Shown here: positions 9,387 through 15,173 of the stretch, in pieces
How positions within the stretch are numbered: the stretch's first letter is position 1
How the letters are laid out: every line of letters begins with the position of its first letter
Assembly (NCBI GenBank): GCA_949840805.1
Contig: CATKXR010000007.1
Location: 62,001 to 126,000 of the forward strand
Reading direction: 5' to 3'
DNA from: an uncultured Lachnospiraceae bacterium
GTDB lineage: Bacteria; Bacillota; Clostridia; Lachnospirales; Lachnospiraceae
DNA length: 64,000 nucleotides
Program-made: the position numbers and the translations under genes
Notes under the pieces: model-generated
Seen by the model: only the letters and a program-made list of their open reading frames with translations
Database searches by the model: none
What the model was told of the DNA's origin: nothing

Positions 9387-12300
9387 ATGAGCGAACAAAG
9401 AATACGTAAAAATAAGATAGGAGCAAGATGGCTATCAGATTTGGAGGTTGAATCAATCCTTCCAACTTACAGACGGATTTATCATCAGATTGAACAATTC
9501 CGTTTGGAAAAAGAACCGATAAATCATTTAGAAAAGCAAAAATCAAAGGATCAATATGAGGAAGATCAAAACAACAAGAGTCAAGATAAAGCACAAAAAA
9601 CCAATAATATTGGGATCATAGGAAAAAGAGGTGCCGGAAAGACTTCTGTTTTAAAGACAATCCGAGTTCAATTGGAAAAGGATAAGCGTGATAGGGCATT
9701 AAATGATATAATACTTCCGATCATCGTTCCTGAGAATATGTCGGAATCCGGAACGTTGATGGCAACGATCTTAGGAATGCTGAGTGAGGTGATAGAGAAA
9801 AAGGATAAGGAAGAACTAAAAAGACAGAAAAGAAGCAATATAGACTGCATTAGAAAATCGCCTCTTCAGATAAAGTGTGACGAAGTGATTAAACAGTATA
9901 CATATATTCAAAAAGAATATCGGGATATTTTGATTCGCCAGTATACGACAGAGAATCATTATGTGAATCAATCAGCTATGGTGTTCAATTCAGATACGGA
10001 ATTTATCAATAAATTTAATGAATTGATTGAAGAACTGATTAATGTAGGGGGGCAGGATAGTAGCCTTCTGTTTCTTTTTATCGATGATATTGATTTAAGT
10101 ACATATCGGTGTGCAGATGTGGTAAAGACACTCCTCTCTTATTTATCAAATGAAAATATTGTTACTTTTATTTCAGGAGATCTGGAAACTTTTGAAGAAG
10201 CATTGACTTTGGACTTTCTTAGGCAGGAAAATATATTGGATAACGGTATTTTGGAAAGGAAAGTTGGAGATAATACATTGTTTGAAAGTAAAAAGCTGCT
10301 TGCTTATGAATATCTTAAAAAAATTATTCCTCCTATATTCCGTTATAATATTAAATACTGGTCTTTAGCGGAAAAAGGGAGTTATCGTATTGAAAATTTG
10401 GATGTAAATCAGATACAGGGAGAGTTTCTTAAACAAGAGCGCTTAGACAAGAAAAAAGGAAAGGGGATGACACTTTCAGATCTGCTGTTTGAGTCATTAA
10501 AAGGATGGGTGGATCCGGCGTTTTTTCGTTATGCGGAAATTAAAGATGATAAAAGTCAGGAAGAAAACAAAGATCAAGTGGAATATTTGCCATATACTTA
10601 TCATTTATTTGATGATACTTCCCGCGGATTGAATAACATCTATAATGTATTGAGTGAAATTGCGGTGGTAAGAGAAGGGGAACAGACAAGCTGGAAAAAA
10701 GAAAAGCAACTGCTGTTGGATACGATTATTTCTTCTAAGCCAATTTATAACAAGCATCGAAACGAAATTCAGTTAAATTTTTTCCATGTGGGGGAAAAAA
10801 AGACGGATAGCAGGGTGTTTTTTGATAATGCGGGAGCTATTATATACAAAAGCTATATGAAAGAAAGCTTATCGGATACTCGCAATTCATTAAAAAAATC
10901 TGAGGAAATATATTACATAGAGGATCCAGTGGAACGTTTTGCTCTGTTTATCTTGGTAGATTTTGCTGCAAGGCTTTTATACGAAGAGGATTATGAAAGA
11001 AAGACAAAAGCGGACGGATTTTATAAAATTTTGAAAGAGATGGCAATCAAAGATTTATTTTTCTATCCCATTATAGCAGAAAAGGTTATGGATGTTTCGA
11101 AGCTTATTTGGGAAAATAAAGATGAAAAGGAATTAAGAGAGAAAAGGGCAGATTATCGGACAGATTTTCATACATCGAAAATGTTGGAAGTGAAAAGATT
11201 GAATAGTAGTTTTCTCTTGAAAGGAGATTTGGTGCTGAATCTGGCATATTATAAAAATCTCCCATTAGATAAAATGTTAAAATTATATGGAGAACAGTTG
11301 CCGAATGAATCCGAAGCAGGAATAGCTGTAGCAGTGGAATTGGAAGAGAGTGCTGTCATCGCCATTTGGAAAGCCTTTTCATCGGAAGCGAAATTAAATG
11401 GTGCAGATGATACATCAAATATTATTGCTCGGCATTACTCTGACTTTTGGAAGGAATTTGCGTATATTCGTGATCAGCTGTCAAGTTCTGTCACACAGAA
11501 TATTGCCATAAAAATGTTTGATGATGAAGTGAATGCTGTTCTTAGCGGAGATAATAAAAACACAAAAGAAACATGGGAAGAACTAAGAAAAAAAATGCGG
11601 ATGGGACGTATCTTATCAAATACAATGGCGCAAGTGCTAAAAGAGTCAGGTCAGGATGCGGTTCAGAAGGAGTGGCAGGAAATTCATCTTGATAATCTGT
11701 ATGTAGTGGATAACAATAAAGAAGAGAAAAGGATTGAAGAAGAGGATGCAGAAAGAAGGAATATAGAAAATCGGATACAAATTTTAAAAATAATCGATTC
11801 AGATAAATTGTGGCAGGCTGAGGCTGCGGGGGATGCAGTTAATTATTTAAGAAAAGCGGTTCAAGAATATGCAGCATATGTGAAAAAGAATCTTGAGGAA
11901 AAGAAAGTGTGGAGATTAAATACAAGTGATGCAGCTGATAGCTGGGATGAATTTGAGAATACATATGTTGGTGGAGCCGGGACAATAGCACGGCGCACGC
12001 GCAACGAAGTCGACAGGATTCTTGGATTTAACCAAACAAATTTTAAGAAGGGGATGCCTCTTCATATATATTACAGAGTAGTTGAGAGTCTTAAAGAATT
12101 AGCTGGCAATGACCGGGTGTGGTATGGACAATCGGAAGCGCAGAAAATATTAAACGATATGCAAAAAGCTTATGCCGAGCCAGGTACACAAGATGAAAGC
12201 TGGGATTTATGGCTTAAAAAACATTCTTATTTTAAGTTTCTTTTACAATGCCTATATAAATATAAAATAGAAGCAGAGCAGGGGAATGATACAATGCGAA

Positions 12301-15173: not shown

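What the first reader, a model, noticed from the sequence alone, without database searches (positions are those of the whole stretch)
9387..15173. RADAR-type (RdrA-RdrB) anti-phage operon in a Clostridia-like genome
Seen: an ATPase with clear Walker A/B next to a 900-aa protein carrying the ordered ADA metal/catalytic motifs (HLH, HAGE, RIGHG, SDDP), AT-rich relative to flanks, bounded by a palindrome and a strong terminator. Known: RADAR consists of RdrA (ATPase) and RdrB (adenosine deaminase) and restricts phage through adenosine deamination. All RdrB active-site motifs appear intact. No accessory membrane gene (SLATT/Csx27-like) is visible, so it may be a minimal and divergent version.
Basis: partly seen in the sequence, partly recalled or inferred. 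Interest (0 to 1): 0.82.

Follow-up and report, generated by a model that had tools for sequence, protein, structure and literature searches.

The report
Divergent RADAR anti-phage operon (rdrA-rdrB)
This stretch carries a two-gene bacterial immune system of the known RADAR type, which is thought to stop phages by converting the cell's ATP into ITP; it is a distant gut-bacterial branch of that system which standard annotation leaves unnamed.

Summary
A 1020-aa AAA+ ATPase gene (9387-12449) and a 900-aa adenosine-deaminase-fold gene (12471-15173) lie 21 bp apart in an AT-rich block. The RADAR reading also holds. RdrB matches RdrB models well above any other deaminase, folds like E. coli RdrB (Foldseek 5e-22, against 2e-5 for the next family), keeps every zinc and catalytic residue, and has the three RdrB insertions. 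RdrA matches RdrA over its AAA+ domain and helical crown, and RdrA structures are its only significant fold hits; its C-terminal 650 residues cannot be aligned to proteobacterial RdrAs. Five congeners lack the block at the same site, so the operon is a 6.1-kb insertion of two genes with no accessory gene. It belongs to a well-supported, mostly Bacillota clade apart from E. coli-type systems. Ten or eleven of 299 genomes of this family carry RdrA/RdrB-like pairs; none passes NCBI's naming cut-offs. The two-gene form is standard RADAR, not a minimal version. The 5' palindrome is within chance; the 3' hairpin is real but its T-run serves the opposing gntR gene. The likely mechanism, (d)ATP-to-(d)ITP deamination triggered through RdrA, is inferred from E. 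coli. Verdict: new member of a known kind.

The parts
9185..15296 (.). inserted RADAR cassette (about 6.1 kb), absent at the same site in five congeners; boundaries good to about 10-50 bp
   Evidence: blastn and sequence comparison of L116-L120
9375..9379 (+). GGAGA ribosome-binding site of rdrA, 7 nt before ATG 9387
   Evidence: sequence
9387..12449 (+). rdrA: AAA+ ATPase RdrA, 1020 aa
   Evidence: PADLOC RdrA 3.9e-11, NCBIfam NF041743 1.6e-15, PDB 8hr7 4.9e-5, Foldseek RdrA 3.2e-10, hhalign 8.9e-17
9621..9647 (+). RdrA Walker A, residues 79-87 GKRGAGKTS
9756..10040 (+). RdrA crown-like helical insertion (helices 124-146, 159-183, 189-218), which in E. coli contacts RdrB
   Evidence: AlphaFold2 model, hhalign to proteobacterial RdrA
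10083..10088 (+). RdrA Walker B, D233/D234
10179..10181 (+). RdrA sensor 1, D265
   Evidence: aligns with the SGD/TGD motif of E. coli and proteobacterial RdrA
12471..15173 (+). rdrB: adenosine deaminase RdrB, 900 aa
   Evidence: PADLOC RdrB 3.6e-30, NCBIfam NF041744 3e-52, PDB 8fnw 1.4e-16, Foldseek E. coli RdrB 5.2e-22, hhalign 6.7e-62
13059..13067 (+). RdrB zinc motif H197-L-H199 (E. coli H152/H154)
14247..14258 (+). RdrB H593-A-G-E596 (E. coli H498/E501)
14334..14345 (+). RdrB R622-I-G-H625 (E. coli H530), with the same 32-residue spacing from H593
14964..14975 (+). RdrB S832-D-D-P835
15225..15269 (-). strong hairpin; T-run on the minus strand, so probably the terminator of gntR, possibly used by both genes

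Best explanation
The operon is a complete RADAR anti-phage system of a divergent, mainly Bacillota branch, acquired by insertion between a gntR regulator gene and the operon beside it. By analogy with the E. coli system, RdrB assembles into a hollow shell with zinc deaminase sites and RdrA rings dock on it through their helical crown. A phage signal, probably sensed by the fast-changing RdrA C-terminal lobe, switches the complex on. RdrB then converts ATP and dATP to ITP and dITP, which starves or poisons phage replication and the infected cell. Shown here: gene pairing, homology, intact active sites, fold and insertions, horizontal insertion, co-inheritance. Inferred: assembly, substrate, trigger and defence.
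For: RdrA/RdrB are the top models and structures. RdrB aligns over 701 columns to proteobacterial RdrB (E 6.7e-62), including the zinc and catalytic motifs. RdrA aligns through Walker A, crown, Walker B and sensor 1 (8.9e-17). The catalytic set is intact. RdrB has all three insertions: first His at 197, 396 residues from HxH to HxGE, 207 from the last His to SDDP. A large ORF ends within 300 bp upstream of rdrB in 69 of 72 loci. RdrA and RdrB distances across 24 loci correlate at r = 0.98 (0 of 2000 permutations as high), and RdrA is the more divergent in 276 of 276 pairs, least conserved in its C-terminal half. Empty sites in five congeners. Mechanism of the E. coli relative: PMC9994260.
Against: Scores are far below NCBI's equivalog cut-offs (RdrB 178 of 800 bits, RdrA 57 of 600). 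The RdrA C-terminal ~650 residues have no detectable similarity to proteobacterial RdrA, and the whole-chain TM-score is about 0.3. No functional data exist for this clade, and the E. coli interface residues were not mapped one by one.
Confidence: 0.9

Rival explanations
1. A RADAR-derived pair whose output differs: RdrB edits adenosines in RNA threaded through RdrA rather than free nucleotides, as first proposed for the Citrobacter system.
For: PDB entries of RdrA in an 'RNA-loading state' are among the best fold matches; a weak A-to-G signature was seen with C. rodentium RADAR (PMC9994260).
Against: E. coli RdrB acts on (d)ATP and not on hairpin RNA, and no strong RNA editing was seen in vivo (PMC9994260). 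Nothing in this sequence points to RNA.
Confidence: 0.12
2. A metabolic adenosine deaminase next to an unrelated ATPase, not a defence system.
For: Pfam sees only a generic adenosine deaminase domain.
Against: RdrB models and structures beat every metabolic deaminase (NF041744 3e-52 against 6.5e-14 for aden_deam; Foldseek 5e-22 against 2e-5). The two genes are co-inherited, sporadic within the genus (3 of 24 genomes) and inserted horizontally.
Confidence: 0.03
3. An effector like Cad1, the CARF-fused deaminase of type III CRISPR systems, that also makes ITP.
For: A weak PADLOC CARF-ADA match (5.5e-6) and Cad1 fold matches at 1e-4.
Against: The match is to the shared deaminase part only; RdrB ranks far higher, the partner is RdrA, and no CARF domain was found in RdrB.
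Confidence: 0.01

Closest known systems
RADAR (RdrA-RdrB) of E. coli and Citrobacter rodentium
   Same: gene order and pairing, AAA+ core with crown-like insertion, RdrB fold with three insertions, all zinc and catalytic residues
   Different: about 15% identity in structural alignment for RdrB; RdrA C-terminal part not alignable; RdrA is 1020 aa against 947; separate branch of the RdrB tree
Unnamed RdrB relatives in Lachnospiraceae, Clostridium, Paenibacillus, Bacillus cereus and Cetobacterium
   Same: 31-83% identical RdrB with RdrA upstream; same clade
   Different: other genomic sites; RdrA 880-1357 aa; called hypothetical proteins in the annotated plasmid records
Cad1 (CARF-adenosine deaminase of type III CRISPR)
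   Same: deaminase fold, ATP-to-ITP output
   Different: cyclic oligoadenylate-activated CARF fusion; no RdrA; matches only the shared deaminase core

Membership tests
RADAR | rdrA and rdrB adjacent in one operon | tested here: met
   21-bp gap; the same pairing in relatives
RADAR | RdrA AAA+ core with Walker A, Walker B and sensor 1 | tested here: met
RADAR | RdrA helical crown insertion between the Walker motifs | tested here: met
   three long predicted helices 124-218 and alignment to RdrA; the contact residues were not mapped
RADAR | RdrA C-terminal helical lobe of the RdrA type | tested here: inconclusive
   predicted mostly helical, but no sequence alignment beyond residue ~373 and low TM-score
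RADAR | RdrB zinc histidines and catalytic glutamate | tested here: met
   H197, H199, H593, E596, H625 invariant and aligned to RdrB references
RADAR | RdrB insertions 1-3 in the deaminase core | tested here: met
   motif spacings 197 / 396 / 207 residues (E. coli numbering in PMC9994260); E. coli RdrB is the best fold match
RADAR | NCBIfam equivalog cut-offs for RdrA and RdrB | tested here: not met
   57 of 600 and 178 of 800 bits. No genome of the family sample passes either, so this is a naming threshold rather than a defining biological feature
RADAR | RdrA heptamer on RdrB dodecamer | not testable with these tools
   needs purification and electron microscopy
RADAR | (d)ATP deamination and phage defence | not testable with these tools
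   needs enzyme and plaque assays
Cad1 / CARF-ADA | CARF domain fused to the deaminase | tested here: not met
   Pfam finds only the deaminase domain; the PADLOC match is confined to residues 778-896

The most novel reading that the evidence does not exclude
The Bacillota clade is a separate RADAR subtype in which the conserved RdrB engine is coupled to an RdrA with a different, rapidly changing sensor lobe. It would respond to other phage triggers than E. coli RADAR, and it makes RADAR several times commoner in this family than current annotation shows.
Probability: 0.35. Interest if true: 0.5.

Novelty: new member of a known kind. Interest (0 to 1): 0.35.

Why it matters
It extends RADAR to a coherent branch in gut Lachnospiraceae and other Bacillota that annotation leaves nameless: 0 of 299 family genomes pass NCBI's cut-offs although ten or eleven carry the pair, against a quoted DefenseFinder rate of 0.59% of complete genomes (PMC13327615; a different detector and sample). 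The contrast between a conserved RdrB and a fast-changing RdrA C-terminus points to that lobe as the likely sensor, which can be tested by swapping lobes between systems.

Tried and rejected
Searched viral contigs and phage records for RdrB: no relative. Looked for tRNA genes or known RNA families in the window: none; no integrase or target-site duplication was recognised at the insertion, so how it moved is unknown. Looked for a conserved third gene beside relatives: none. The A2 profile of RdrA found nothing in the PDB by sequence, although the single sequence and the fold did. The TTG start at 9228 was rejected for lack of conservation. The second Cell 2023 RADAR paper (doi 10.1016/j.cell.2023.01.026) was not held. 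S. suis RdrB, a tested Bacillota system, could not be fetched and placed on the tree.

Full report
Observation. The likely start of the first is ATG 9387 behind GGAGA, giving 1020 aa; homologues mostly start at or near the equivalent place. Two long ORFs with hundreds of homologues are not chance.

Identity of the second gene. PADLOC RdrB 3.6e-30, NCBIfam RdrB 3e-52 with the next family, ordinary adenosine deaminase, at 6.5e-14, and E. coli RdrB as the best PDB sequence (1.4e-16). A good AlphaFold2 model (pLDDT 84.5, pTM 0.86) matches E. coli RdrB at 5e-22 with TM-scores of 0.62 and 0.72, while other deaminases start at 2e-5. Profile comparison with proteobacterial RdrBs covers 701 columns (6.7e-62). 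H197, H199, H593, E596 and H625 correspond to E. coli H152, H154, H498, E501 and H530; the spacing from H593 to H625 (32) equals that of E. coli (PMC9994260). Motif spacing shows the N-terminal extension, the insertion inside the core and the insertion after the last histidine.

Identity of the first gene. PADLOC RdrA 3.9e-11, NCBIfam RdrA 1.6e-15, PDB RdrA 5e-5. Its model is fair (pLDDT 78, pTM 0.76); all 20 fold matches at E <= 0.001 are RdrA structures, but with TM about 0.3. Sequence homology covers residues 27-373, that is AAA+ core plus crown. The rest does not align, in line with the report that RdrA conservation is limited to the ATPase domain (PMC9994260).

Genomic setting. Five congeners (L116-L120) carry the same neighbours, a URO-D family gene on one side and gntR on the other, with only a short intergenic stretch between them. 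The window's 6.1 kb between about 9185 and 15296 is therefore an insertion of exactly these two genes plus short flanks. Within the genus, 3 of 24 genomes have an RdrB relative: this one, one 66% identical, and one of a different, longer type.

Relatives. 71 loci in one genome per species encode relatives. A large ORF ends within 300 bp upstream of rdrB in 69 of 72 loci studied, and the RdrA profile identifies it throughout the Bacillota clade where the contig is complete. No third gene is shared. A quick maximum-likelihood tree puts the window in a 30-row, mainly Bacillota clade (SH-aLRT 99) apart from Pseudomonadota and Bacteroidota systems; a Cetobacterium plasmid copy sits inside it. The support is SH-aLRT only and the tree is unrooted. 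RdrA and RdrB distances correlate at r = 0.98 and RdrA is always the more divergent; its residues 511-1020 are 53-58% identical among the closest relatives, against 85-88% for its second AAA+ segment.

Detection. In 299 genomes of the family, ten genomes (G000, G028, G029, G076, G107, G144, G176, G201, G262, G273) match both NCBIfam RdrB and RdrA in neighbouring places, G252 matches RdrB alone on a short contig, and none passes the cut-offs. This suggests 3-4% prevalence in this sample; it is not directly comparable with the quoted 0.59%.

Mechanism. From the E. coli work (PMC9994260): RdrB converts ATP and dATP to ITP and dITP, RdrA enhances it, and both are needed. With all catalytic parts intact here, the same chemistry is the best inference. 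The trigger is not established in the work read here; the RdrA C-terminal lobe as sensor is a hypothesis of that paper which the divergence pattern fits but does not prove.

Verdict. A real, intact, divergent RADAR operon: a new member of a known kind, of moderate interest for its clade and for the annotation gap.

Noticed in passing
49581-51416 (+): A 611-aa gene in a second AT-rich block (32-35% G+C) matches AIPR (Pfam 3.2e-30) and AbiU (PADLOC 3.6e-27): a second likely anti-phage gene in the window.
   Followed up: partly
9080-9113: Inverted repeat AGATTAGTAATATT-N6-AATATTAGTAATCT before the URO-D operon, beside a perfect minus-strand TTGACA-17-TATAAT promoter; much of it is kept in the empty-site congeners. 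Possible operator of the neighbouring GntR regulator.
   Followed up: no
L042 (5111-10730 and 11753-17900) and L047: Oceanirhabdus sp. W0125-5 carries three RADAR operons on one chromosome, two of them in tandem; in L047 the ATPase is split into two ORFs.
   Followed up: no
L122, L134, L133: Genomes G029 and G176 carry two RADAR types each, the second with an RdrB of about 1060 aa; G317, which has the empty site, has a similar long RdrB (open frame 1037 aa) on another contig.
   Followed up: partly
L030, L041 (rdrB): The SDDP motif is not found by pattern in these two RdrBs although the other motifs are; whether it is a substitution or something else was not checked.
   Followed up: no
L027 4805-10432: Both rdrA and rdrB of Lachnospiraceae bacterium 3-1 are broken into two ORFs each, so this copy looks like a decaying system.
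   Followed up: no
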